From Polaribacter sp. (GTDB lineage Bacteria; Bacteroidota; Bacteroidia; Flavobacteriales; Flavobacteriaceae): a stretch of DNA of 64,000 nucleotides. This document shows, in pieces, positions 1 through 15,158 of the stretch. A program made the position numbers and the translations under genes. Where the stretch lies: positions 1-64,000 of the forward strand of contig JAQWGI010000016.1 in the NCBI GenBank assembly GCA_029238315.1, given 5' to 3'. Under the pieces are notes generated by a model. That model had not been told where the DNA came from. It was given only the letters and a program-made list of their open reading frames with translations, and ran no database searches. Positions within the stretch are counted from its first letter, which is position 1. Each line of letters opens with the position of its first letter.

Positions 1-57
1 GGGAAATCAAAATTCAAACATCTCAATCTCCTTATTTTAATTTCTTAATTTTGACTC

Positions 58-591
58 ATGTCAAGCACTAATTCAAAAGATAAAGACAACCCTTCAAAAA
101 GAATAGAATACAGAGGAAAAAATGTCCGAGTTTCAAGAACAGGAGGTGTTTCTGCAACGAAAACATTTAAGGGTGATGGAGTTGGTGCTACCATAAACAC
201 CAAACACGGACTTCGTCTTCATAAACGTTTGTTTAAGGGGGCAAGAATGGGTTTCCAAAACGGTAACTTTCAATTTATTGGAAGATACAACAGTGGTCCA
301 TTCAATTTCAATGTTTCAAAAAATGGAGTTAGTACTTCCCTTAAAAATAAACGAGGTTCCTATAATATCTTAAAACCAAATTATTCCAGTTTCAAATTAG
401 GAGGTATTCAAGTACGAGGAAAAAACGCTGCTACTTTTCAAATGATCTACATGTTGATCATTCTCTTTGTTAATTTCATTAAAGTATTTTGGCACATTTT
501 CATCTCTATTTTATGGTTTGGTTTTTTATCCATTAAATGGATTGTAGATTTTACAATTGGATTTTTCAAAGGTTTTAAAGAAGTTAACTAA
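58..591 (+). CDS. hypothetical protein with C-terminal hydrophobic segment (weak DUF4236-like 'SKNGVSTS' motif)
   Basis: ORF 177 aa; hydrophobic C-terminus; TAATTTTG -7-like box just upstream. Confidence 0.6.
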   Translation: MSSTNSKDKDNPSKRIEYRGKNVRVSRTGGVSATKTFKGDGVGATINTKHGLRLHKRLFKGARMGFQNGNFQFIGRYNSGPFNFNVSKNGVSTSLKNKRGSYNILKPNYSSFKLGGIQVRGKNAATFQMIYMLIILFVNFIKVFWHIFISILWFGFLSIKWIVDFTIGFFKGFKEVN

Positions 592-628
592 AGTTCCCTG
601 TAACTAAAGCACCTTATAACTTTATAGT

Positions 629-1918
629 TTACATATTAAAAAATCCTTGATCCAATATGTGTCGGGTGCGCTCATCTGATGTGATCCTAATGTACTTGAG
701 AAACTCCTTTTCAGTTTTATGACCTGAAATATGCATGATATCTTGAATTGACATTCTTTTTAAATAATAATTTGTACAGAAACTTCTACGTGCAGTATGT
801 GACTCCAACATTTCCCACTTTGGACGTGTATAAGTTCTTTTAACTCCTCCCTTTGTATCATGACATAAAATATCTTCATTCATATTTAATTTTCTTCCAA
901 TTAACTTGAGGTACTTGTTTATCTTTTGGTCTGATAGTTTTGGAGGGGGCTGGTTATTGTATCTCGCCATTATTTCTCTAAGTTCTATTGTTATTGGACA
1001 GTTAACTTTAACACCACTTTTCTTTTGAAGAATTTCAAAAAAATGAACCCTGTCTTTTTCTACAATATCTATACCTGATAATCGATTATAGTCACTAATA
1101 CGTTGTCCTGTATAACAACCCACTAAGAAGATATCTCTTGCCAACTCCATAGTCTTGTCATTTGAAAGATCTAAATCCTTCATCTTACGTATTTCATTCT
1201 CACTTAAATAAATCTTTGTTGGCTCCTCCGTTGGAATTGAAAACAACCTGAGATCTACATCTCCAATTAAACCTCTCCTCTTCCCTTCCAACACAATCGT
1301 TTTTATTGATTTGAAATGTTTTGAAATGGTGTTTAATTTAAACCCTTGTTCAACCTCCAAAAACCTCTTAAAGTCGTTTAAAATAGGTCTTGTGAAAGAT
1401 GTGAAATCAATTGATGTTGTGGAATCTGAAAACAATTTAAGTTTCTTTAAGGACTGTTTATATAGTAGTAAAGTAACATTTTCAATACTACCCCTCTTCT
1501 CCTCGATGAACTCATCTGCAAAAACAAAAAAATCATCTTGAATTACTTTTACTTCTGATTCAATATTTCGATTTGTCAACCTATCGAGAATAGATCTTAA
1601 AACTTCATTATTGACTTCTTTTCCCTCCAATACTAATTCCGAATGATCATGAATGAGTTCATTCTGTAACTTGTCAAGGTATCTATTAACTGTTGCTGAA
1701 TTAATTATAAGACTTCGATTTCTTCTAACTCTTTGTCTTTCAAAATCCCAATCTGCATAACCTACTGATATTCCAATTGAATATCTTAATCTTTGTCGTT
1801 TACCATAAGAAAACCATAATGAAATTGGACTTTCTTTTCTACTTTGTCTTAATGACTCTTTGGATTCCTTCAAATTGTACCTTACAGTTCCTAATTGTGG
1901 TTTAATTATTTTCTTCAT
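629..1918 (-). CDS. tyrosine recombinase / phage-type site-specific integrase
   Basis: C-terminal catalytic motifs TGQRISD, HTARRSF, SGHKTEKEFLKYIR; SAM-like N-terminal region. Confidence 0.93.
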   Translation of the reverse strand: MKKIIKPQLGTVRYNLKESKESLRQSRKESPISLWFSYGKRQRLRYSIGISVGYADWDFERQRVRRNRSLIINSATVNRYLDKLQNELIHDHSELVLEGKEVNNEVLRSILDRLTNRNIESEVKVIQDDFFVFADEFIEEKRGSIENVTLLLYKQSLKKLKLFSDSTTSIDFTSFTRPILNDFKRFLEVEQGFKLNTISKHFKSIKTIVLEGKRRGLIGDVDLRLFSIPTEEPTKIYLSENEIRKMKDLDLSNDKTMELARDIFLVGCYTGQRISDYNRLSGIDIVEKDRVHFFEILQKKSGVKVNCPITIELREIMARYNNQPPPKLSDQKINKYLKLIGRKLNMNEDILCHDTKGGVKRTYTRPKWEMLESHTARRSFCTNYYLKRMSIQDIMHISGHKTEKEFLKYIRITSDERTRHILDQGFFNM

Positions 1919-2107
1919 ACGGCTAATATACAGCGCATAAAGGGTGTGCTCAAAGGTGTGCGCAGTTTAGTTATTTGTAGTTTATTTCTCTTTATTTCAT
2001 TTTATATCTTTATAATAAAAATGATGTTATATCATTAATTATTAATGATTTAGGTGTTTTTAAGATTAAATGAAATAAAGTAAATTCTTCCTGGAGGTAC
2101 CACAAAA

Positions 2108-2150
2108 TTATCCCGTAACTCATTTATAAACAATGATTTACGGGTTTTTT
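2108..2150 (+). terminator. hairpin followed by T-run, rho-independent terminator-like
   Basis: cccgtaactcatt..aatgatttacggg inverted repeat followed by tttttt. Confidence 0.5.
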
Positions 2151-2255
2151 GGTTTTTGGGGTTGCTCGAGAGGTTGCTCGGGAGGCATAAAAAGATAACT
2201 GTGAACTGATTATATTACACTCCAAAAGTTAAGTTATTAATGACTTAAGTAACCT

Positions 2256-2423
2256 ATGAAACAACGAATTAAACATTGCACCATTTGTAAAGTAGATTTC
2301 CCTACCATGTACCGAGTACAATACAAAAACCCAAAAGAATGGGCGTTTGTTTGTAAAGAGTGTCTTAAAGACGTTAAAAAAGACAATCCGTTATATGCTT
2401 ATGGTGGAACTTGGAAACGGTAA
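2256..2423 (+). CDS. small zinc-ribbon-like protein (55 aa), not in supplied ORF track
   Basis: MKQRIKHCTICKVDFPTMYRVQYKNPKEWAFVCKECLKDVKKDNPLYAYGGTWKR; two CxxC knuckles. Confidence 0.75.
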   Translation: MKQRIKHCTICKVDFPTMYRVQYKNPKEWAFVCKECLKDVKKDNPLYAYGGTWKR

Positions 2424-2469
2424 ATGAGACTTCGTTTTAAGAAAAAGAAAAATTAAGTGCTGCTAAAAT

Positions 2470-3585
2470 TTAGATCGTTTTAATATTTAACACGTAACGA
2501 CTACTTTTTAATTTTCCAGATTTGATAACTATTTTTTTATCTGTTAAATCCTTTAAATCTCTTGTAGCTGTAGATTCCGACGTTTTTGCAATTGTTCTAT
2601 AATTTTTTGCACTCAAACCTCCAACAAAACCCTCATGACCTGCTTCAAATATGCGTTGAATAACCTTGTACTGTCTATCATTTAAATGAAATTTAAAACG
2701 ATCAAAAAACTTTGTTTTCTCGAGAATAAAATCAATACTTTTTAGAGTGTTTTGTTGCGCTTCTAGAATTGTATTTCCCAAATAAAGTAACCAATCTGTA
2801 ACTTCTAATCTTGTATTATTTGTTTCAAGGGAACTGTAATACTCTTTTTTACGAATTTCAATAGTATGAGACAATGAAATCAAAGTAGGTTGTCCGGTAC
2901 TTATAGCAATTGATTTTTCCGTTAAAGCTCTTGCAATTCTTCCATTTCCATCTTCAAATGGATGGATACAAACAAAATACAAATGTGTTAACCCTGCCTT
3001 GACAAGAGGTAACATACTTGTATTAGTAAAATGAGTTTCATTGAACCAAACGATAAATTGTTTCATTTCCTTTTCTATTTTGATAGATGGAGGGGCTTCG
3101 AAATGAATATTTGGTTTATCTAATCTACCTGAAACAACTTGCATAGGTGAATTATGAGTTCTATATTTTCCAATATCAGTTAAATCTCGTCTCCCATTGG
3201 TAAGCATTTTATGCCATTCAAATAATTGTTCATCAGACAATCGTTTGTTATAATTTCGGTACAAATCAACCATCATCTCAGCAATACCATATTCTGCAGG
3301 TGGTACTTTTCTATTTACTACAGTTAATCCAAGGTTTTTCTTTATTGATGACTCTACACTCTCTCTATTTAAAACTTCCCCCTCTATTTCAGAAGTTTTT
3401 AAAGCTTCATTACTCAGAATTTCTATCAATAAATCATTTTTAGAAACATCTTCGATATGTTTTAAAGCTCCAAATACACTTCCTGTATTTTGAGAAAATT
3501 GAAGTTCTAACTTTTCTAAAGCTTCTTTATCATAAGAAAAATGAGGCCAATTTTTAAGCAACCAATTCCAAACCTTATATGCCAT
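2470..3585 (-). CDS. Fic family protein (AMPylase/nucleotidyltransferase-like) with N-terminal inhibitory motif and C-terminal winged-helix-like region
   Basis: Fic motif HPFEDGNGRIAR; TSEIEG matches the [S/T]xxxE[G/N] inhibitory motif. Confidence 0.93.
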   Translation of the reverse strand: MAYKVWNWLLKNWPHFSYDKEALEKLELQFSQNTGSVFGALKHIEDVSKNDLLIEILSNEALKTSEIEGEVLNRESVESSIKKNLGLTVVNRKVPPAEYGIAEMMVDLYRNYNKRLSDEQLFEWHKMLTNGRRDLTDIGKYRTHNSPMQVVSGRLDKPNIHFEAPPSIKIEKEMKQFIVWFNETHFTNTSMLPLVKAGLTHLYFVCIHPFEDGNGRIARALTEKSIAISTGQPTLISLSHTIEIRKKEYYSSLETNNTRLEVTDWLLYLGNTILEAQQNTLKSIDFILEKTKFFDRFKFHLNDRQYKVIQRIFEAGHEGFVGGLSAKNYRTIAKTSESTATRDLKDLTDKKIVIKSGKLKSSRYVLNIKTI

Positions 3586-3603
3586 GAACGATATCTTTAT
3601 TTT

Positions 3604-3658
3604 TTATCGCTCAAATTTAATGATATTTTGAGCAATAAATTAGGTTTTTATCACTCAA
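3604..3658. promoter_or_regulatory. three-copy operator-like repeat upstream of fic
   Basis: TTATCGCTCAA (3604), inverted TTGAGCAATAA (3628), TTATCACTCAA (3648); same array and spacing in the relic at 7577-7631. Confidence 0.55.
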
Positions 3659-3883
3659 TCCTATTCTTTCCTATTTAATTTGATAAAATTTCAATTTTTA
3701 ATATTACAACTACATTCTTTTCATCAAAGAAAGTTTGAATTCAAACAAATATTAAACTGTATAAATTAAGAACTGTTTTCATTTTTATATTAGTATCATT
3801 ACATTACAACTATTATTTTGAATATTATTATTCTGAATATGATATTTTTATTTAAAATATTAAAAAATCTACCACACACTTTT

Positions 3884-5710
3884 ATGAAAAAAATTATTTT
3901 TATTTTTTTAGCTACAAGCTTAATAATATCTTGTGTTAATGAAATTGAAGAAACTCCTATTTATAATGTTACATTTTCAGCAGCTCAAGGTGGAAGTGTA
4001 AGTAATTTAGGTGGACAGTATGAGTTAAATCATAATATCTCTGTAACAGCAATACCTGATGGAGAATATATGTTCAAAAAATGGTCTGACGAAAACACGA
4101 ATACTTTAAGAAACTTCAAAGTAACTTCGGATATAAACCTAGAAGCTTTTTTTGAGAAAAGAAAATACCCTTTAATAATTAATATAGAAGGAGAAGGAAA
4201 AGTATTAGAAGAAATTATGACTGCTAAAACCACAGACTATGACATTGGCACACGTGTAAAATTAACTGCAGTAGCTACCGGTGAATGGTATGTCTTTGAT
4301 TCATGGGGAGATATAGACACAGCTAATGTTAGTTCTAATAGTGTTGAGTTAGTAATAACAGAACCAACAACTTTAAATGTAAAATTTAAAGAATCAAATA
4401 TAATTGTAAAGGAGAATATTACACGCATTGACATACCCGGACAGTCAACAGAATACCTCAGAGCTTCGTTCTATAATGTTAGTGGTCCTTTTCATTACAA
4501 CAGTGATGGTGGGAATTATATGTTTTATCCTGGAACTGCAACTGGTTGGAGTCAAAATAATTCTTTGTCTAAAGATGATATTGAATCATCCCCTTCACAT
4601 GCTCTAAAAAGGGTTAATGGAAAATGGGAGTATTTCAAAACATTTGAAGATGTACGATTTTGGGGGGCAAGAAATTTTGAAATCATAGATAACAAGATCG
4701 TTATGGGTGATGGTAATGAGATTGGTGATGATATGACAGATTGGGATGGAGACACATATTATGGAGAAATTCTTGGCGAAGGTGATATTAAATGGACAAA
4801 AGTAAATGACAATAGCAATATGGGGTACTATCACGGAAGCACAATTGGTGATCTTAATGGTGATGGCTTACTGGATGTTGGTGGCGCTCCAGGACAATGG
4901 TATCCAGATTTAAATGAGTGGCGTATAAAAATTTTCACACAAAATAACGATGGAAGCTTCAATAATATTGATAATGTTTTAGATTTTGATTCTGGAGAAA
5001 TTCCTTTTACGTTAGATTTTGCAGATGTCTTTGGAGACTCTAAGGATGAAATTATTTTTGCTGATTATGGGAATGGAGATACAAGTAGTAATGGAAATTT
5101 AAATCAAATTCAAATTTTTGCCTACAATAATTCTACAAATAAATTTGAACTCCACTGGAAGTCTTCTTCACCAAGTGCGTTTTATAGTGTTGGATGGGGT
5201 GCAACCTCAATAAAAGTGTATGACTTTGATAATGATGGCATTAAAGATATCGCTGTTGCCCGTGAAGGTCATGGTAGTGCATTTGAAGTTTGGAAAGGTG
5301 AAGGAGATGGTACTTTTACACCAAATTACTCCAAAAATTTTATTGATAATGAAATGCAATTTAGAGAGTTTTTATTGATGGATGTAAATACAGATGGTTT
5401 TATGGATATAATTTTAAGGCCTTTTCATTATGGTTCATTATATAGAAACAATCCTGTTTGGTGGGATGTTTATGCAAATAACGGAATAAAATTAAACCAT
5501 CTTATTTGGATTAATAATGGCGATGGAACATTTCAAAATTATAATACTGAGGAGCTAAAGATAGAAGGAATGTTAGTTGATAATGTTCACCCATATATGG
5601 AAAATGGAATCCTACATTTTGTTGGTTCTTTTACAACCGATGAGGGTAATTTATATGGACAAGACGCAATCGATTTAACAACGTATGATATAAAAGTGAA
5701 TTTAAAATAA
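3884..5710 (+). CDS. lipoprotein with InlB B-repeat-like N-terminal repeats and FG-GAP/VCBS repeats
   Basis: Signal/lipobox MKKIIFIFLATSLIISC; DLNGDGLLDVGG and DFDNDGIKDIAV FG-GAP motifs; internal ATG preferred over 3818. Confidence 0.85.
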   Translation: MKKIIFIFLATSLIISCVNEIEETPIYNVTFSAAQGGSVSNLGGQYELNHNISVTAIPDGEYMFKKWSDENTNTLRNFKVTSDINLEAFFEKRKYPLIINIEGEGKVLEEIMTAKTTDYDIGTRVKLTAVATGEWYVFDSWGDIDTANVSSNSVELVITEPTTLNVKFKESNIIVKENITRIDIPGQSTEYLRASFYNVSGPFHYNSDGGNYMFYPGTATGWSQNNSLSKDDIESSPSHALKRVNGKWEYFKTFEDVRFWGARNFEIIDNKIVMGDGNEIGDDMTDWDGDTYYGEILGEGDIKWTKVNDNSNMGYYHGSTIGDLNGDGLLDVGGAPGQWYPDLNEWRIKIFTQNNDGSFNNIDNVLDFDSGEIPFTLDFADVFGDSKDEIIFADYGNGDTSSNGNLNQIQIFAYNNSTNKFELHWKSSSPSAFYSVGWGATSIKVYDFDNDGIKDIAVAREGHGSAFEVWKGEGDGTFTPNYSKNFIDNEMQFREFLLMDVNTDGFMDIILRPFHYGSLYRNNPVWWDVYANNGIKLNHLIWINNGDGTFQNYNTEELKIEGMLVDNVHPYMENGILHFVGSFTTDEGNLYGQDAIDLTTYDIKVNLK

Positions 5711-5743
5711 TTTTAATCTACGGACAAAATAAAATTTAGACTT

Positions 5744-5989
5744 ATGAAAAAATATTATTTAATTTTATTAGTTGGACTTATTGTTTCATGTTCAAATGAA
5801 ATTGTTGAAGATATTAAAGACATTGACACTACAATACCTGTAATTACCTTATTAGGTGATAATCCAATGACTATTGAGGTTGGAAATACTTATATTGACG
5901 CAGGAGCTAAAGCTATTGATAATTCAGATGGAGACATTAGCTCTAATATCATTATCCACCTGCATCTAAAACTAATGCTGTTTTCATAA
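5744..5989 (+). pseudogene. truncated lipoprotein with partial DUF5011-like domain
   Basis: MKKYYLILLVGLIVSCSNE signal; VITLLGDNPMTIEVGNTYIDAGAKAIDNSDGDISSNI then abrupt end. Confidence 0.6.
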
Positions 5990-6032
5990 AATTGATTTTA
6001 TATAAATATAATCACTTCTCTAAACTAAGGGT

Positions 6033-7199
6033 TTATTTCATGTTAAATTTTGAGCCATTCCATTCCCAGTGTGGTGATCCGTAACCTAAATTTCCTTTAT
6101 CATTAGATATGATATCTAATTCTCCATCGTCATCAATATCTTGTACTCTTATCCAAATAGGCCAGCGTATATCATTAGCTAAAGAATTGTCAACAATGTT
6201 ATCTATTATTTGATAATCCTTTGTGCTTATTACTTCGATATAGTATCCTTCGTATACATTTTTAAATCTTCCAGTTATTATATCAATAAACCCGTCTTGA
6301 TTTATGTCTGCAAAATCAAAATCTATAACTCCTTCCCAAGGAGATGAAAATGGTATAATTTGTGACCGTAAGTAAGAGAAGTCAATTCCGTTTCCAAAAT
6401 ATACTCTAGTTTGAAGATTATTTTCGTCTCCACCGGCAATTAAATCTAAATACCCGTCCTTATTTATATCAAATAATTCCATAGTAACAAAACCCTGTTG
6501 TTTAGAGTCTGGTGGTATTACTATTAAATCTGTTTCTGTGAAAGTACCGTCTCCATTATTTAAAAATGTAAGTATCACATGTTGTGACGACATTATAATA
6601 TCTAAGTCTCCGTCATTATCAATATCTCCTGAGGCTCCGGTATGTAAATAATATTTTGTCTCAGATAAATTTACAAGCTTATAGCCTGTCTCTGAGCTTA
6701 TAAGTAATGTAGGTGTAGAGCCTTCTGTTGGCCACATGTCAACTCCCTGTTCCGGGTAAGCTACATCAGGTTTACCGTCATTATTATAATCCCCTAACAG
6801 ACCTTTACGGGCATTAAAAGTTCCTACTTCTCCCAATATAGTAAAAGGTGTTAATGTAAAAGTCTTATTATCACCTTGATTTTTAAAAAATTCAAGAGGG
6901 AGATCTCCGTACCCTCCTGCGTTTTCATATAATGTAGGGGCTGCTAGTAAATCTTCAAATCCATCTCCATCGAAATCTGCAATGACTTCAGGACAGCCGT
7001 ATGCTATAGTTCCGAAATTTATATTATTTTCTTCTAACATACTATAGTAGTCTATCCATATATTAGATTTAGATAAGTTATAAGAAGTATCGAAGTATGA
7101 TTTAGTTTGCTTTGGAGGTTGAATTATCTCTAATGATTCCTTTTGACAAGAATTTATTAAAGTTCCTAAACATATTAAATAAATAATTCTTTTTACCAT
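6033..7199 (-). CDS. FG-GAP/VCBS repeat lipoprotein
   Basis: Lipobox LINSC; repeated DFDGDGFEDLL, DYNNDGKPDV, DIDNDGDLDI, DINKDGYLDL motifs. Confidence 0.87.
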   Translation of the reverse strand: MVKRIIYLICLGTLINSCQKESLEIIQPPKQTKSYFDTSYNLSKSNIWIDYYSMLEENNINFGTIAYGCPEVIADFDGDGFEDLLAAPTLYENAGGYGDLPLEFFKNQGDNKTFTLTPFTILGEVGTFNARKGLLGDYNNDGKPDVAYPEQGVDMWPTEGSTPTLLISSETGYKLVNLSETKYYLHTGASGDIDNDGDLDIIMSSQHVILTFLNNGDGTFTETDLIVIPPDSKQQGFVTMELFDINKDGYLDLIAGGDENNLQTRVYFGNGIDFSYLRSQIIPFSSPWEGVIDFDFADINQDGFIDIITGRFKNVYEGYYIEVISTKDYQIIDNIVDNSLANDIRWPIWIRVQDIDDDGELDIISNDKGNLGYGSPHWEWNGSKFNMK

Positions 7200-7434
7200 G
7201 ACCTTTATTTTAATTTTTATACTATGAGAACACGAAATTTATATTAGATTTCCAATAAATTTACTCAAAATTCAACATTTAAGTTGATGTAACGTTGATT
7301 TATTAGTTGTAAAACGTTGCAATTATATTTTTATATTATTTTTAGAACAATATAGATTTGTTAAGTAGACTGAAAAGCAAACTTTATACAAAAAAATATT
7401 TTTACTACAAACCACCAAAAATCTTAAAAACTCA

Positions 7435-7631
7435 TTGCTCAGGAGGTGTAAAAAGAGTTCTAGAAAGGGGTTATATTTTTAAGTTTGGTTATTGGTGAGT
7501 TAAGTTAATATATAACGGCTACTTTTTTAAGCAACCAATTCCAAACTTTATATCTCAAGAGCGATATTCTTATCTTTTATCACTCAAATTTGATACTATT
7601 CTGAGTAATAATTTATGTTTTTATCACTCAA
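7435..7631 (-). pseudogene. relic of fic locus: operator-like array plus first ~11 codons fused to 3' end of fic
   Basis: 7524-7640 aligns to 3551-3660; 7511-7528 resembles 2490-2510; 7435-7456 matches 2174-2195 at 19/22. Confidence 0.8.
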
Positions 7632-7788
7632 TCTTTCTATTATAAGATTAATGTACTTTAAAGAAGTGACGGATAAATTTCATATATATTTTAAGTTTAC
7701 TTTATAAAATATATCCATATCTCCGAATTAAAAAAAATGATTAAATTTGATATGGATACTCATACAAAAACAAAATTTAACGCATCGA

Positions 7789-8469
7789 ATGAAAAAGACA
7801 AGACTGACTATTATAGCTGTATTATTAATACTGCCGTTTATTAAAACTAATGCACAAGAAAAAGCATTTAATAAATACGCAATCGGTTTTACCTCTGGAA
7901 CAAGGGGTCTAGGAGGCGAAATTATAACAAACTTATCTAAAACACTAAATTTAAGAGCATCTTACTCGGGGTATAGGCACACAGAAAGTGGAGAAAATAT
8001 TGAAAACGATGTTACCATTGGTTATGATGCAGAAGGTTCTATAGAAGCACTCTCTTTAGTTGTTGATTACCATCTTTTTAAAAATAGTTTTAAATTAATA
8101 GGAGGAATTGTGAATCATAAATTTGAGGTAAATGCTTATACCGCTCCAACGAGCCCTTTTAAATTTAGTGACACAAAAACATTTCTACCTGAAGAACTTG
8201 GCTCAATAACTGCTCAAGTTAGCTACCCAAATAAATGGATGCCTTATTTAGGATTGGGCTTTGGAAACTCTTTATCTGAAGGTAAAAAAGTAAAACTAAA
8301 TGCCTCTTTAGGGGTATTGTTTAGTGGTTCACCTGAGTTAGAAATGCAAGGTTCTGGTTTAATACTCCCTACAATCAACCAAGTTATCGATATCCAGGAA
8401 GGCTTAGACGAGTTTGGCTTTTTTCCAATACTTAATATTGGAGTTACTTTTTTACTTTTTAAAGAATAA
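7789..8469 (+). CDS. outer-membrane beta-barrel-like hypothetical protein
   Basis: Signal peptide MKKTRLTIIAVLLILPFIKTNAQ; alternating amphipathic strands; internal start preferred. Confidence 0.65.
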   Translation: MKKTRLTIIAVLLILPFIKTNAQEKAFNKYAIGFTSGTRGLGGEIITNLSKTLNLRASYSGYRHTESGENIENDVTIGYDAEGSIEALSLVVDYHLFKNSFKLIGGIVNHKFEVNAYTAPTSPFKFSDTKTFLPEELGSITAQVSYPNKWMPYLGLGFGNSLSEGKKVKLNASLGVLFSGSPELEMQGSGLILPTINQVIDIQEGLDEFGFFPILNIGVTFLLFKE

Positions 8470-8474
8470 AAATC

Positions 8475-10082
8475 ATGAAAAAAATAAAATTTTTACTAAT
8501 TGCAAGTATTGGAATTTTTACAATAATATCTTGCGATATAACGAAACTAGAAAATGCATTTGATAATTTTGGTTTGATTATTGGTTTAAAACCAATAAAC
8601 ACATCTGCAACTATAATTCTTACCGATGCCAAAACAGGAGAATTAATTAATACAACCGTAGAGACTACTTTTATAGGAGATAATGAATCTTTTGTTATAG
8701 ATACATTTAGCGATCCACTTAAAAGCAATACTTCAACCAATGGGATCCTTGATTTTGGGATAAACAACACTATTACACCAACTGAACAAAACCCATTTAA
8801 GATTCGGTTAAAATTAACTGCACCTGGATATAAAGATAAAGAGCAAACGATTTCAATATTAGAAACTGGAAGCTCAAACTTTACCATATCTATGGTGAAT
8901 TTATCAAATCCACCCGTTGGAATTATCATAAACGAATCGTCAGTTGCATCTATTTCATCTGAAGGAATTACTAATGAAGATATTAATATCAGTATCACTG
9001 ATATGGATACTGACACAAATACAGAAGTTGGTGTTAATATTAGCATACCTAAAGGCACTCTTTTTACGGATAGTAATGAAAATCCTTTATCTGGAGAGTT
9101 AAGAGCAAATACTACTTTTTATAATAGCTCAAAAACTTTGGCTGTTAAAGAAATTGACGAACGCCTACTAGAAAATGTTAATGATTCTACTTTAGTTGTA
9201 GTAAGTGCCGTTCAAATGAACTTAAAAGACAGCTCAGGAAATAGTTTGACCTCAACAAAAAATAAAACGGTTTATCAACAAAAAAACACTGGAAATTACA
9301 TAATTGGATTTATCTTAAACAGTAGCACCTTTAGTGAATTACAACAAGTTTTGAGGCTTGCATACATATCTCCTTCCACTGCAGAAAGATTCATTTTATA
9401 CACAGTTCCAGAAGTACAAACATTAAGTAATGGAAGGGTAGAACTGAGATACCTATTAAATGATAATCTAATTAGAAATATGGCTCTCGTCTATTTTAGC
9501 GAGCAACCTTGTAATTCTATTTTAAAAATAAACAGAAATGGTAATCTAGGAAAAATAAGTATAGAAATAACAGAAAAAGGTTTTAGAAGAGACGTTGATA
9601 TTCAAGAAAACAGCAACACTACAAGTTTAAAAAACATCACAAAAGGGGCTAAAAAAATAACTATAAGACTTCCTTTCGAAACAATTGAACAAAATGTTGA
9701 CTTATGTGGAAGTACTTCAAAAACGATAGATTTGCCTGCAATGCCTCCAGCATTAATTGACGCTACAATTAAAGTTCTATTGACCTGTCCAAATACTGAT
9801 GATAAATTAAGAGTCACAGATATACCTGCTGCTTCTGTGGTATACAGAGAAAAAAATGCACCACCAGGAACTGCCTGGCGTGTTGCAACAGATTTAAACT
9901 GGGTGTACAATTCAGAAACAAATATTTTAGAAAGTGCTTCCTGTAGGATTAATGGTGTTGAAGTTGGGAAAAACTACACCATCAAGGTAAGTTATGATAA
10001 CTCAACTAAAGAAAAAGATGTTTTGATATCAGGATCGCTTGTTGAATATAATGAAACAGTCGATGCAAGTTTTTGTAATTAA
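8475..10082 (+). CDS. hypothetical lipoprotein
   Basis: Lipobox FTIISC; long ORF 5 bp after the preceding gene, likely same operon. Confidence 0.75.
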   Translation: MKKIKFLLIASIGIFTIISCDITKLENAFDNFGLIIGLKPINTSATIILTDAKTGELINTTVETTFIGDNESFVIDTFSDPLKSNTSTNGILDFGINNTITPTEQNPFKIRLKLTAPGYKDKEQTISILETGSSNFTISMVNLSNPPVGIIINESSVASISSEGITNEDINISITDMDTDTNTEVGVNISIPKGTLFTDSNENPLSGELRANTTFYNSSKTLAVKEIDERLLENVNDSTLVVVSAVQMNLKDSSGNSLTSTKNKTVYQQKNTGNYIIGFILNSSTFSELQQVLRLAYISPSTAERFILYTVPEVQTLSNGRVELRYLLNDNLIRNMALVYFSEQPCNSILKINRNGNLGKISIEITEKGFRRDVDIQENSNTTSLKNITKGAKKITIRLPFETIEQNVDLCGSTSKTIDLPAMPPALIDATIKVLLTCPNTDDKLRVTDIPAASVVYREKNAPPGTAWRVATDLNWVYNSETNILESASCRINGVEVGKNYTIKVSYDNSTKEKDVLISGSLVEYNETVDASFCN

Positions 10083-10394
10083 ACTATAGGTAAATCCAGA
10101 AATTACACGAAACGTCTGAGAAACAGAAAAGTAGCATAATTCATTTTATATATTGCAAGCATAAGCATACGATTGCTATACTTCTTATCTAGCTAAAAAA
10201 AGGCGTCTATATTGGTTGCCTAGTGCAAAAAATTATCATTTACAAGTTATAATTCAATAATTGACTTTTCTATGACTTGGAAGGTGATTTATTCAGAGGT
10301 TTTACCTTATCGTTTTCCTACAATAGGGATCAATATAACCCTAACTAAAATCATATTGATGTAAATTTAGTACTCTTAGAACAAAAAATATAAA

Positions 10395-10402
10395 TAACTT
10401 TG
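10395..10402 (+). promoter_or_regulatory. Bacteroidetes-type -7 promoter element (TAnnTTTG) upstream of hutH
   Basis: taactttg, 22 nt before the hutH ATG. Confidence 0.5.
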
Positions 10403-10423
10403 TAAGAACACGAAATTAATCAA

Positions 10424-11917
10424 ATGATATTTAAATACGGCATCGATCCATTAACAGCGCACACCGTTATGGAAATTGCAAACGGTAACATCAAGGCAAT
10501 CATTAATAAAGAAGCCGTTCAACTTATCAACACTTGCAGAGCTAAAGTAGAAACAATGGCAAAAGGCAATAGGGCTATTTATGGAATTAATACAGGATTT
10601 GGCCCTCTTTGTGACGTTCAAATAACAGCAGCAGAAACAAGTAAACTTCAAGAAAACTTGTTAATTACCCATGCAGTAGGCGTTGGAAAACCTATAGACA
10701 AACAAATCTCTAAAATTATGATGATTTGTAAAGTTCATGCTTTGTGCCAAGGTTTTTCTGGCGTAAGATTAGAACTGATTGAGCGTATTTTATATTTCAT
10801 AGAAAAAGATTTAACTCCTGTTGTTCCAGAACAAGGTTCTGTGGGCGCCTCTGGTGATTTAGCACCTCTGTCTCATTTATTTTTACCCTTATTAGGTGAA
10901 GGTGAATTTTGGGTTGGAAACAAGATTAAAGCAGCTAAAGAAATTTTAAAGAAACATCATTTAAAACCATTAATACTTCAAGCAAAAGAAGGATTAGGGT
11001 TAATTAACGGTACGCAATTTATTTTGGCGCACGCTATTATTGGGTTAAAAAAAATGGAATATCTTCTAGACTTAGCTGATGTTTGTGGTGCAATGAGCAT
11101 TGAAGGCTACCAAGGTAGTCAATCACCATTTAAAAAAGAATTACATAAAATTCGCCCTTTTAAAGGAAACATAAAAGTTGCAGCACGCATGCGAATGCTA
11201 TTTGAAAAATCGCAAAATATTAACTCACACGAAAGCTGTTCTCGTGTTCAAGACCCATACTCTATGCGTTGTATACCTCAAGTTCATGGAGCTTCTAGAA
11301 ACGCATTTTATCATCTAAATGAGTTGACAGAAATTGAAATGAATGCGGTTACAGACAACCCAATTGTATTGAGTGAAACAGAAGCTATTTCTGGCGGAAA
11401 TTTTCATGGACAACCTTTAGCAATGGCATTAGACTATTGCTCTATTGCAGCATCTGAATTGGGAAATATTTCTGACAGACGCTGTTATTTATTACTAGAA
11501 GGAAAGTATGGATTGCCAAGATTGTTAACTGCTAGTGGTGGATTAAACTCTGGATTTATGATTCCACAATACACAACTGCTGCTTTGGTTACAGAAAACA
11601 AATCGTTATGCTTTCCTCCTTCTGCTGATAGCATACCAACTTCTTTAGGGCAAGAAGATCATGTTTCTATGGGAAGTATTTCTGGACGAAAGTTCAATCA
11701 AATTTTAGAGAATATCGAAAAGATACTGGCAATAGAACTTATGTATGCTGCGCAAGCAATGGATTTTAGAAGACCAAATACATTTTCTAAAATCATTGAA
11801 GAGAATTTTAAGATCATAAGAAATAACGTTGATAAATTAGAAGAAGATCGCTTGCTAAAAGACGACATCAATACATTGATCAATTTAGTTAAAAAGCAAT
11901 CTTTAGTTGTAAAATAA
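10424..11917 (+). CDS. hutH: histidine ammonia-lyase
   Basis: MIO motif GSVGASGDLAPLSH; operon with hutU and hutI. Confidence 0.97.
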   Translation: MIFKYGIDPLTAHTVMEIANGNIKAIINKEAVQLINTCRAKVETMAKGNRAIYGINTGFGPLCDVQITAAETSKLQENLLITHAVGVGKPIDKQISKIMMICKVHALCQGFSGVRLELIERILYFIEKDLTPVVPEQGSVGASGDLAPLSHLFLPLLGEGEFWVGNKIKAAKEILKKHHLKPLILQAKEGLGLINGTQFILAHAIIGLKKMEYLLDLADVCGAMSIEGYQGSQSPFKKELHKIRPFKGNIKVAARMRMLFEKSQNINSHESCSRVQDPYSMRCIPQVHGASRNAFYHLNELTEIEMNAVTDNPIVLSETEAISGGNFHGQPLAMALDYCSIAASELGNISDRRCYLLLEGKYGLPRLLTASGGLNSGFMIPQYTTAALVTENKSLCFPPSADSIPTSLGQEDHVSMGSISGRKFNQILENIEKILAIELMYAAQAMDFRRPNTFSKIIEENFKIIRNNVDKLEEDRLLKDDINTLINLVKKQSLVVK

Positions 11918-11925
11918 AAAAACAC

Positions 11926-13923
11926 ATGACATTTAAAGAACAAATTTTACAAGGAATCCCTCATATCTTACCTCTAAAAAAAGCATATCCAAGCAATGTA
12001 AATAGTGCTCCTAAAAGAAAAGATATTTTATCTGCTGATGAAAAAAAACTAGCCCTAAAAAATGCGTTGCGTTATTTCCCAAAAGATTGGCATCAAGAAT
12101 TAGCATCAGAATTTGCGAAAGAACTAAAAGATTTTGGTAGAATTTACATGCATCGTTTTAAGCCAGATTATAAAATATTTGCTAGAGCTATTGAAGCGTA
12201 TCCTGCTAAATCAACTGAAGCAGCTGCACTTATGTTAATGATTCAAAACAATTTAGATCCTGCAGTAGCTCAACACCCAGAAGAATTAATTACTTACGGA
12301 GGAAATGGAGCTGTTTTCCAAAATTGGGCACAATACTTACTGGTGATGCATTATTTAGCAACCATGACCAATGAGCAAACATTGCATTTGTATTCTGGCC
12401 ATCCAATGGGATTATTTCCTTCCTCTAAAAATGCTCCGAGAGTTGTTGTTTCAAACGGAATGATGATCCCAAATTACTCAAAACCTGATGATTGGGAAAA
12501 GTTTAATGCCCTAGGCGTTACACAATATGGGCAGATGACTGCAGGTTCTTTCATGTATATTGGACCACAAGGTATTGTACACGGAACTACAATTACGGTT
12601 ATGAATGCTTTCAGAAAAATATTACCTAAAGGAGAAAATCCGAACGGGAAAATATTTTTAACCGCAGGTTTAGGCGGTATGTCTGGCGCGCAACCCAAAG
12701 CTGGAAACATTGCTGGCTGCATTACTATTGCAGCAGAAATAAACTCAAAAGCAGCCATAAAAAGACACCAACAAGGTTGGGTAGATGTTTTAATTGACAA
12801 CATGCAAGATTTAATTATTAGAGTTAAAGAAGCACAAGAAAAAAACGAAGTCGTTTCTATTGCATACATTGGAAATATCGTAGAAATTTGGGAGCGATTT
12901 GATGAAGAAAATATTTTTATTCATGTTGGATCTGACCAAACCTCCTTACATATTCCGTGGACTGGCGGTTATTATCCTGCAGATATCTCTTACGATGAAT
13001 CCAATAGGTTAATCGCAGAAGATCCTGTTGTTTTCAAAGAAAAAGTACAAAAAACCTTAAGAAGACATGCAGCTGCAGTTAACAAACACGTTAAAAAAGG
13101 AACCTATTTTTTTGATTATGGAAATGCCTTTTTATTAGAATCTTCAAGAGCCGGAGCAAATGTTATGGCAGAAAATAATATTGATTTTAAGTATCCTTCT
13201 TACATTCAAGATATATTGGGCCCCATGTGTTTTGATTACGGTTTTGGCCCTTTTAGATGGGTTTGTGCTTCTGGCAAAACTAAAGACTTAGAGACAACTG
13301 ATTCAATTGCTGCAAAAGTTCTTCAGAAGATTATGGAAAATTCTCCTGAAGAAGTTCAACTTCAAATGCAAGACAATATTACCTGGATTAAAGAAGCTAA
13401 AAATAATAAAATGGTGGTAGGCTCTCAAGCACGTATTCTATATGCTGATGCAGAAGGAAGATCGAAAATAGCTGAAGCATTTAATAACGCAATTGCAAAA
13501 GGTATTATTGGTCCTGTAATTTTGGGTAGAGATCATCATGATGTAAGCGGAACTGATTCTCCTTTTAGAGAAACCTCAAATATTTATGATGGTAGTAAAT
13601 TTACTGCAGATATGGCTATTCATAATGTGATTGGCGATAGTTTCAGAGGTGCCACTTGGGTTTCCATTCACAATGGCGGCGGTGTTGGCTGGGGAGAAGT
13701 AATGAATGGTGGATTTGGAATGTTATTAGACGGTTCAAAAGAAGCAGAAGCAAAACTAAAAAACATGCTTTTTTATGATGTGAATAATGGAATTGCAAGA
13801 AGAAGTTGGGCAAGAAACAACGAAGCAATTTTTGCCATTAAGAGGGAAATGGAAAGAACACCAAATTTAAAAGTAACGCTACCAAATCTTGTAGAAGATG
13901 AATTATTAAACGACTTATTTTAA
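11926..13923 (+). CDS. hutU: urocanate hydratase
   Basis: YSGHPMGLFPS, TAGLGGMSGAQPKA, GRDHHDVSGTDSPFRETSNI motifs. Confidence 0.97.
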   Translation: MTFKEQILQGIPHILPLKKAYPSNVNSAPKRKDILSADEKKLALKNALRYFPKDWHQELASEFAKELKDFGRIYMHRFKPDYKIFARAIEAYPAKSTEAAALMLMIQNNLDPAVAQHPEELITYGGNGAVFQNWAQYLLVMHYLATMTNEQTLHLYSGHPMGLFPSSKNAPRVVVSNGMMIPNYSKPDDWEKFNALGVTQYGQMTAGSFMYIGPQGIVHGTTITVMNAFRKILPKGENPNGKIFLTAGLGGMSGAQPKAGNIAGCITIAAEINSKAAIKRHQQGWVDVLIDNMQDLIIRVKEAQEKNEVVSIAYIGNIVEIWERFDEENIFIHVGSDQTSLHIPWTGGYYPADISYDESNRLIAEDPVVFKEKVQKTLRRHAAAVNKHVKKGTYFFDYGNAFLLESSRAGANVMAENNIDFKYPSYIQDILGPMCFDYGFGPFRWVCASGKTKDLETTDSIAAKVLQKIMENSPEEVQLQMQDNITWIKEAKNNKMVVGSQARILYADAEGRSKIAEAFNNAIAKGIIGPVILGRDHHDVSGTDSPFRETSNIYDGSKFTADMAIHNVIGDSFRGATWVSIHNGGGVGWGEVMNGGFGMLLDGSKEAEAKLKNMLFYDVNNGIARRSWARNNEAIFAIKREMERTPNLKVTLPNLVEDELLNDLF

Positions 13924-15158
13924 TGATAACTTTATACACAAACATTAAAGAATTAATTCAGGTTAGAGATAAAACTGTTTCTTTTGTTTCTGGAAAACAA
14001 ATGAAGAAACTTCCTACTATTAAAAACGCATTTCTACTTGTTAAAAATGGATTCATCTCTGACTTTGGATCAATGGAAAATTGTCCAAAAATCGATGCAG
14101 AAGTTACTGACGTAACCGGAAAAATGATATTACCTTCTTGGTGTGATTCACATACACATATTGTCTTTGCCGGCAACAGAGAAATTGAATTTGTAGATAG
14201 AATAAAGGGATTGTCTTATGAGGAAATTGCAACTCGTGGTGGCGGAATTCTTAATTCAGCAAAAAAGCTTCAGCAAACGTCCGAAGATGATTTATATATT
14301 CAAAGTAAGACACGCTTAGAAGAAATTATACTGCAAGGAACTGGCGCTGTTGAAATAAAATCTGGCTATGGTTTAACAGAAGATTCAGAATTAAAAATGC
14401 TTCGTGTGATCAAAAGATTAAAAGAAAATTATGATATCCCGATTAAAGCAACTTTTTTAGGTGCACATGCAGTTCCTTCAGAATACAAAGAAAATAAAGA
14501 AGCGTATTTACAATTACTAATTAAAAAAGTATTACCGAAGGTAGCCCAACAGAACTTAGCAGATTATATTGATATTTTCTGTGAAACAGGTTATTTCTCT
14601 GTTGCTGACACAGAACTCATTTTAGAAGCAGGAAAAAAATATGGATTAATTCCTAAAATACACGTAAATCAATTTACTGCAATTGGTGGTGTACAAGCAG
14701 GAATTAAATACAATGCTTTATCTTTAGATCATCTAGAAGAAATGAGAGAAGAAGATATTACTGCTCTTAAAAATACAACCACAATGCCTGTTGCATTACC
14801 AAGCTGCTCTTACTTTTTAAGCATTCCATACACACCTGCAAGGAAAATGATTGACGCAGGTTTACCACTGGCTCTGGCAACCGATTACAATCCGGGATCT
14901 ACACCTTCTGGAAACATGAATTTTGTAGTTGCTACTGCATGTATTAAAATGAAAATGACTCCAGAAGAAGCTATCAATGCTGCAACAATTAACGGTGCGT
15001 ATGCAATGGGATTAGAAAATGAAGTAGGCTCCATAACAAAAGGTAAATTAGCAAATTTTATCATTACAAAACCTATTAACTCTTATGGGTTTATTCCGTA
15101 TTCATTTGGAACACTTCAAATTGAAAAAATATTTCTAAAAGGGAAAGAGGTTTTATAA
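13923..15158 (+). CDS. hutI: imidazolonepropionase
   Basis: Amidohydrolase WCDSHTHIVFAG; KSGYGL; ATDYNPGS; ATG overlaps hutU stop by 1 nt. Confidence 0.96.
   Translation: MITLYTNIKELIQVRDKTVSFVSGKQMKKLPTIKNAFLLVKNGFISDFGSMENCPKIDAEVTDVTGKMILPSWCDSHTHIVFAGNREIEFVDRIKGLSYEEIATRGGGILNSAKKLQQTSEDDLYIQSKTRLEEIILQGTGAVEIKSGYGLTEDSELKMLRVIKRLKENYDIPIKATFLGAHAVPSEYKENKEAYLQLLIKKVLPKVAQQNLADYIDIFCETGYFSVADTELILEAGKKYGLIPKIHVNQFTAIGGVQAGIKYNALSLDHLEEMREEDITALKNTTTMPVALPSCSYFLSIPYTPARKMIDAGLPLALATDYNPGSTPSGNMNFVVATACIKMKMTPEEAINAATINGAYAMGLENEVGSITKGKLANFIITKPINSYGFIPYSFGTLQIEKIFLKGKEVL

What the first reader, a model, noticed from the sequence alone, without database searches (positions are those of the whole stretch)
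7435..7650. Relic of the fic locus produced by a microhomology deletion
7524-7640 closely matches the intact fic 5' end plus upstream region (3551-3660). Read on the minus strand, YKVWNWLLK is kept, then the sequence switches to AAAAAGTAGCCGTTA, matching the fic 3' end (AAAAAGTAGTCGTTA, ~2496-2510). Both parental sites carry TTAAAAA (3551-3557 and 2505-2511), so a ~1.05 kb deletion between 7-bp microhomologies explains the junction. The ATG has become TTG, and the remaining frame reads LRYKVWNWLLKKVAVIY*.
Basis: seen in the sequence. Interest (0 to 1): 0.6.

Follow-up and report, generated by a model that had tools for sequence, protein, structure and literature searches.

The report
Dead fic gene in tRNA-Phe hotspot
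A short stretch of DNA is the leftover front end and control switch of a second, deleted fic gene, lying in a chromosomal hotspot for mobile islands next to a tRNA-Phe gene; such leftovers are ordinary, but the switch it preserves turns out to be conserved across many bacterial phyla and is probably read by the Fic protein itself.

Summary
The relic is real, but it is more than a fic remnant. 7524-7633 is 85% identical to the 5' end and upstream region of the intact fic gene (score 141, best of 500 shuffles 40). The 15-bp fic 3' match at the junction (14/15) was reached in 0 of 400 shuffles. The deletion between two TTTTTAA sites is therefore well supported. The left part, 7435-7512, is not fic. 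It is a copy of the sequence that follows tRNA-Phe(GAA) in related genomes, where islands with tyrosine integrases insert. The whole unit [tRNA-Phe-downstream repeat – small ORF – fic – fic promoter] at 2160-3660 is thus collapsed into about 200 bp at 7435-7641, in the same order and orientation. No relative has two intact fic copies; one has fic directly beside tRNA-Phe. The relic retains the complete fic operator: four half-sites at spacings 9-15-9. This operator recurs upstream of DUF4172-Fic-wHTH genes across many phyla, with its last half-site overlapping ATG. Its half-site core covaries between sites and with residue 337 in the C-terminal winged helix, which implies self-regulation like that of Yersinia CccR. 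As a gene relic it is ordinary. The conserved operator is the more interesting by-product.

The parts
629..1918 (-). tyrosine recombinase (Arm-DNA-bind_5, Phage_int_SAM_5, Phage_integrase) of the island abutting the tRNA-Phe-type attachment site
   Evidence: Pfam; 95-98% identical homologues beside the same repeat in G139, G155, G101
2088..2102 (+). 3' end of tRNA-Phe(GAA), TTCCTGGAGGTACCA, duplicated attachment core
   Evidence: alignment with intact tRNA-Phe loci
2112..2151 (+). tRNA-Phe terminator-like hairpin (CCCGTAA...TTACGGG + T-run), shared by relatives
   Evidence: alignment; read from sequence
2160..2255 (+). tRNA-Phe-downstream repeat, intact copy
2256..2423 (+). small ORF MKQRIKHCTICKVDFP... 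that travels with the repeat
   Evidence: protein matches beside the repeat or tRNA-Phe in relatives
2470..3585 (-). intact fic: DUF4172 + Fic + C-terminal winged helix, class II (TSEIEG)
   Evidence: Pfam; PDB 8cil E=2.3e-66
2505..2511 (.). TTTTTAA microhomology near the fic 3' end
3551..3557 (.). TTTTTAA microhomology near the fic 5' end
3585..3657 (-). fic operator, four half-sites (3585-3594, 3604-3613, 3629-3638, 3648-3657), spacers 9-15-9; the first overlaps ATG
7435..7512 (+). second, decayed tRNA-Phe-downstream repeat; lacks the tRNA end and terminator
   Evidence: up to 82% identical to sequence downstream of tRNA-Phe in G145 and others
7513..7522 (-). remnant of the fic 3' end (TAACGGCTAC)
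7523..7530 (.). deletion junction at the TTTTTAA microhomology (one extra T)
7524..7558 (-). remnant of the fic 5' coding end, ATG changed to TTG
7505..7558 (-). residual 17-codon frame LRYKVWNWLLKKVAVIY*, regarded as non-functional
   Evidence: read from sequence
7558..7630 (-). retained fic operator, half-sites 7558-7567, 7577-7586, 7602-7611, 7621-7630, spacing 9-15-9 unchanged; -7-like box TAAATTTG changed to CAAATTTG

Best explanation
7435-7641 is the collapsed remnant of a second fic-bearing unit in a tRNA-Phe integration hotspot. The order tRNA-Phe, islands, hutHUI is shown by relatives. Islands with tyrosine integrases insert at the 3' end of tRNA-Phe and each carries a copy of its terminator and downstream repeat. 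A unit [repeat - small ORF - fic - fic promoter] once lay at the hutHUI-proximal end. It lost its tRNA end, its small ORF and, by a deletion of about 1.05 kb between two TTTTTAA repeats, the body of fic; slipped mispairing or end joining is inferred as the mechanism. What remains is the repeat, a scrap of the fic 3' end, the first 12 codons with the start changed to TTG, and the complete upstream operator. The substitutions sit mostly in spacers, so the second fic probably diverged as a working gene before it was deleted (inferred). The operator is most likely the binding site of Fic's own C-terminal winged helix for autorepression: supported by cross-phylum conservation, by covariation between sites and with residue 337, and by the CccR precedent; binding itself is not shown. 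The relic is most likely inert.
For: 85% identity over 110 nt, score 141 vs shuffle maximum 40. 3' junction 14/15, 0 of 400 shuffles. Left part matches tRNA-Phe-downstream repeats in 12 or more copies in relatives. Intact tRNA-Phe beside these repeats. Chromosome order Lc5-Lc6-tRNA-Phe-repeat-smallORF-hutHUI in G125; own contig C37 carries the Lc6-tRNA-Phe end and C18 the hutHUI end. fic (61%) directly downstream of intact tRNA-Phe in G080, same relative orientation. Other decayed fics in the genus: G007 with 16 stops, partial matches in G122 and G018. Operator: 78 of 80 upstream regions with inverted repeats, mean 11.2 vs 0.99 in shuffles; last half-site at -9 in 66 of 80; core letters of adjacent half-sites agree beyond all 5000 shuffles in five of six comparisons and in 2 of 5000 in the sixth; residue 337 ranks first for core position 7. 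CccR: DNase footprint of two inverted 10-bp repeats and autorepression (PMC9755527).
Against: The junction between the repeat and the fic 3' scrap is only partly explained: it shares TTAATAT with both parents and needs a second deletion. No genome preserves the intermediate with two fic genes, and no other genome held shows repeat - small ORF - fic. The repeat-smallORF-fic order at 2160-3585 could itself be secondary. Self-regulation rests on comparative evidence only; the shuffles do not remove relatedness.
Confidence: 0.82

Rival explanations
1. Recent duplication in place: the present fic and its flank were copied to 7435-7641 and then deleted and decayed neutrally.
For: Same order and orientation of repeat and fic in both copies; the relic is closer to the window fic (85%) than to the next relative L027 (75%).
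Against: Differences avoid the 24 conserved operator positions (P=0.014) and concentrate in spacers (9/36 vs 7/74, p=0.043), which neutral decay of a copy would not be expected to produce. The relic's half-site cores (CAC, TAC, CAC) form their own consistent set.
Confidence: 0.2
2. The relic operator is still a working Fic-binding site, either a decoy that titrates Fic or a control site for the divergent gene at 7747-8469.
For: It is the only second match to the operator pattern in the genome; half-site spacing 9-15-9 and all 24 conserved positions of half-sites 1-3 are unchanged.
Against: HS4 and the -7-like box are mutated; the operator ends more than 100 bp from the likely start of the next gene (read from sequence); retention is equally explained by a late deletion.
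Confidence: 0.07
3. Chance similarity between AT-rich intergenic stretches.
For: The region is AT-rich; the 3' side alone, aligned without the junction, is weak (29 vs shuffle maximum 30).
Against: Score 141 vs 40 for the 5' side; 0 of 400 for the 3' junction; operator geometry preserved.
Confidence: 0.01

Closest known systems
CccR (YPK_0951), Yersinia pseudotuberculosis class II Fic with C-terminal HTH (PMC9755527)
   Same: DUF4172-Fic-HTH architecture (as described in PMC10628234); represses its own promoter through inverted 10-bp repeats (AGATAATCAT-N26-ATGATAATCT)
   Different: Here there are four half-sites of type TTATNNCTCA with spacers 9-15/16-9, the last overlapping ATG; the inner pair is spaced N15 rather than N26; binding not shown; no T6SS link looked for or seen here
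CbFic2 (CBU_0822), Coxiella burnetii, PDB 8CIL (PMC10628234)
   Same: Closest solved structure (E=2.3e-66); DUF4172, TSxIEG inhibitory motif, wHTH
   Different: Studied with non-specific DNA; no cognate operator described in the passages read
Genomic islands integrated at tRNA 3' ends by tyrosine recombinases
   Same: Duplicated tRNA-Phe 3' end beside an integrase, tandem copies, cargo turnover
   Different: Here the terminator and about 90 bp of downstream repeat are duplicated too, and truncated copies without the tRNA end persist
Bacterial gene relics formed by deletion between short direct repeats
   Same: 7-bp repeats at both ends, one copy left at the junction
   Different: Nothing essential

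Membership tests
fic pseudogene / gene relic | significant similarity to an intact fic, with disrupted coding capacity | tested here: met
   (141 vs 40); start lost, ~1.05 kb missing, 17-codon frame
fic pseudogene / gene relic | both ends of the parental gene present at the junction | tested here: met
   14/15 at the fic 3' end, 0 of 400 shuffles
tRNA-associated genomic island site | duplicated tRNA 3' end next to a tyrosine integrase | tested here: met
   2088-2102 and 629-1918
tRNA-associated genomic island site | intact tRNA at the other end of the array in the same genome | tested here: inconclusive
   intact tRNA-Phe at C37:5436-5509 with repeat copies, but the link C37-C18 is not assembled
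tRNA-associated genomic island site | excision or integration activity | not testable with these tools
   needs PCR or reads across attB/attP
DUF4172-Fic-wHTH class II Fic (parent gene) | DUF4172 and Fic domains, inhibitory (S/T)xxxE(G/N) before the Fic motif | tested here: met
   TSEIEG and HPFEDGNGR read in the ORF
Autorepressing Fic (CccR type) | inverted-repeat operator in its own promoter | tested here: met
Autorepressing Fic (CccR type) | the Fic protein binds the operator and represses the gene | not testable with these tools
   only covariation with residue 337

The most novel reading that the evidence does not exclude
DUF4172-Fic-wHTH enzymes across many phyla share one self-operator: four inverted half-sites (N-TAT-NNN-TCA), spacers 9-15/16-9, the last overlapping the start codon. 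Its core is set by a residue of the winged helix (337 in the window protein: A with AGC, E with CGC or TGC, R with AAC or AGC, mainly T/S/P/D with NNA). Class II Fics of this type would thus be self-contained enzyme-repressors, and the relic shows the operator outliving its enzyme.
Probability: 0.65. Interest if true: 0.5.

Novelty: new member of a known kind. Interest (0 to 1): 0.36.

Why it matters
The relic documents turnover of fic genes as cargo of a tRNA-Phe island hotspot, which is expected biology. Tracing it led to a control region that moves with the fic gene across phyla and has a testable recognition residue. Class II Fic enzymes are the majority of Fics and their regulation is largely unknown (stated in PMC9755527), so a predicted operator and specificity code makes their self-regulation directly testable by gel shifts and reporters.

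Tried and rejected
A DNA search with 7430-7700 in the genus gave no second locus holding the repeat and the fic part together. Attempts to read 7435-7512 as part of fic or as fic 3' flank failed; it belongs to the tRNA-Phe repeat. Rfam and ARAGORN found no RNA gene at either copy in the window. No relative with two intact fic genes. The idea that the mirrored G-to-A changes in HS2 and HS3 prove selection on the relic after deletion was considered and dropped: late deletion explains it. Literature searches for a described operator of this family found only CccR and non-specific DNA binding by CbFic2; subscription papers are not held.

Full report
Observation. 3551-3660 and 7524-7633 align without gaps at 85%; the local score is 141 against a maximum of 40 in 500 dinucleotide shuffles. 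TTTTTAA lies at 2505-2511 and 3551-3557. The fic 3' scrap TAACGGCTACTTTTT (7513-7527) matches 2495-2509 at 14 of 15, which no shuffle of the fic body reached in 400; without the T-run it is 9 of 10, reached once in 400. In the 64-kb window this string with at most one mismatch occurs only at these two places.

A search of 168 genomes of the genus with 7430-7700 hit the left third, 7435 to about 7513, in many genomes, often several times per genome and without any fic sequence. Aligned with flanks, most of these copies follow the end of tRNA-Phe(GAA)...TTCCTGGAGGTACCA, a CCCGTAA/TTACGGG hairpin with T-run, then the repeat GGTTGCTCGAGAGGTTGCTCGGGAGGTATAAAAAG.... The window has a fuller copy at 2088-2255, directly beside a tyrosine integrase (629-1918) and followed by a small ORF (2256-2423). 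G139 has an array of such copies; G145 and G101 also hold copies lacking the tRNA end, like 7435.

Chromosomal frame. In G125 the order is Lc5-Lc6-tRNA-Phe-repeat-smallORF-hutH-hutU-hutI (Lc5 and Lc6 are two unnamed genes found left of tRNA-Phe in relatives). In the window's own genome, contig C37 carries Lc6, an intact tRNA-Phe (C37:5436-5509) and two repeat copies close to its end, and C18 (the window) begins with the integrase island and ends the array at hutHUI (10424-15158). The two contigs therefore most likely hold the two ends of one island array; the link is inferred. The relic lies at the hutHUI-proximal end, where the oldest insertions are expected if new islands enter at the intact tRNA (inference).

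Fic as cargo. Within the genus, 18 of 168 genomes have a strong fic match, one each; among these G007 is full of stops and G122 and G018 are partial. In G080 a fic 61% identical lies directly downstream of an intact tRNA-Phe in the same relative orientation as in the window. So fic at tRNA-Phe, and fic decay, are both seen more than once.

Structure of the relic. Intact: repeat (2160-2255), small ORF (2256-2423), fic reversed (2470-3585), fic promoter (to about 3660). Relic: repeat (7435-7512), fic 3' scrap (7513-7522), junction (7523-7530), fic codons 12 to 1 (7524-7558), fic promoter (to 7641). Order and orientation agree. A further loss removed the small ORF and most of the fic tail; its junction shares TTAATAT with both sides and is not resolved.

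Timing. Of 16 differences in 110 nt, none falls on the 24 conserved positions of half-sites 1-3 (P = 0.014 for random placement), nine fall in the 36 spacer positions (p = 0.043 against the rest), and codons 3-12 carry one silent change. This suggests that the second fic diverged under selection and was deleted later. The statistics are modest.

The operator. Upstream regions of 78 DUF4172-Fic loci from GTDB genomes, plus the window and the relic, show inverted repeats in 78 of 80, on average 11.2 pairs against 0.99 in shuffles. Fitted as four half-sites, the spacers are 9, 15 or 16, and 9 in most loci, and the last half-site occupies -9 to +1 in 66 of 80, so that it ends on the A of ATG. The loci come from Bacteroidota, several proteobacterial groups, Verrucomicrobia, Planctomycetota, Melainabacteria and others by record title; some MAG titles may be misbinned. 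Core letters of neighbouring half-sites agree within a promoter more often than in any of 5000 shuffles in five of six comparisons, and in 2 of 5000 in the sixth; for the outer pair HS2-HS4 two of three comparisons do so and position 6 does not stand out (53 of 5000). Mutual information between core position 7 and protein columns is highest at residue 337 (z = 8.1), in the segment TSESTATRD of the winged helix; loci with A there mostly have AGC cores, the two with E (window and L032) have CGC or TGC, R has AAC or AGC most often, and T, S, D or P go mainly with NNA. Relatedness is not removed in these tests, and for core positions 5 and 6 other protein columns rank higher. Together with CccR, which represses its own gene through inverted 10-bp repeats (PMC9755527), this makes self-binding by Fic the best explanation. 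Within the genus the strict operator pattern occurs only upstream of fic genes and in the relic.

Does the relic do anything? Its half-site spacing is intact, but HS4 has lost the ATG base and the -7-like box TAAATTTG reads CAAATTTG (the Bacteroidota -7 consensus TAnnTTTG is from my own knowledge). The residual frame of 17 codons lacks any domain. I regard it as inert, with a small chance of residual Fic binding.

Verdict. Observation confirmed; interpretation right about the fic deletion, incomplete about the rest. The relic is an ordinary by-product of island turnover; the conserved self-operator is worth a separate look.

Noticed in passing
3585-3657 and loci L027-L106 upstream of fic: Cross-phylum four-half-site operator of DUF4172-Fic-wHTH genes overlapping the start codon, with core letters covarying with residue 337.
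   Followed up: partly
L107/L108 (G139:C1 ends and 1-14226): Array of at least four tRNA-Phe-end/repeat copies with integrase genes or fragments, spaced roughly 2 to 7 kb, a dense tandem island array.
   Followed up: partly
2256-2423: 55-aa cysteine-containing small ORF (CTIC...CKEC) that accompanies the tRNA-Phe repeat and is multi-copy in G145; function unknown.
   Followed up: no
3818-5710 and 6033-7199: Two FG-GAP-repeat lipoprotein-like genes between fic and the relic; homologues of both lie together in another tRNA-Phe-repeat island of G145 (L180:2675-5989), suggesting shared cargo.
   Followed up: no
5744-5989: Truncated ORF starting like a lipoprotein (MKKYYLILLVGLIVSCSNE) that breaks off after 81 aa between the two FG-GAP genes, possibly another relic.
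   Followed up: no
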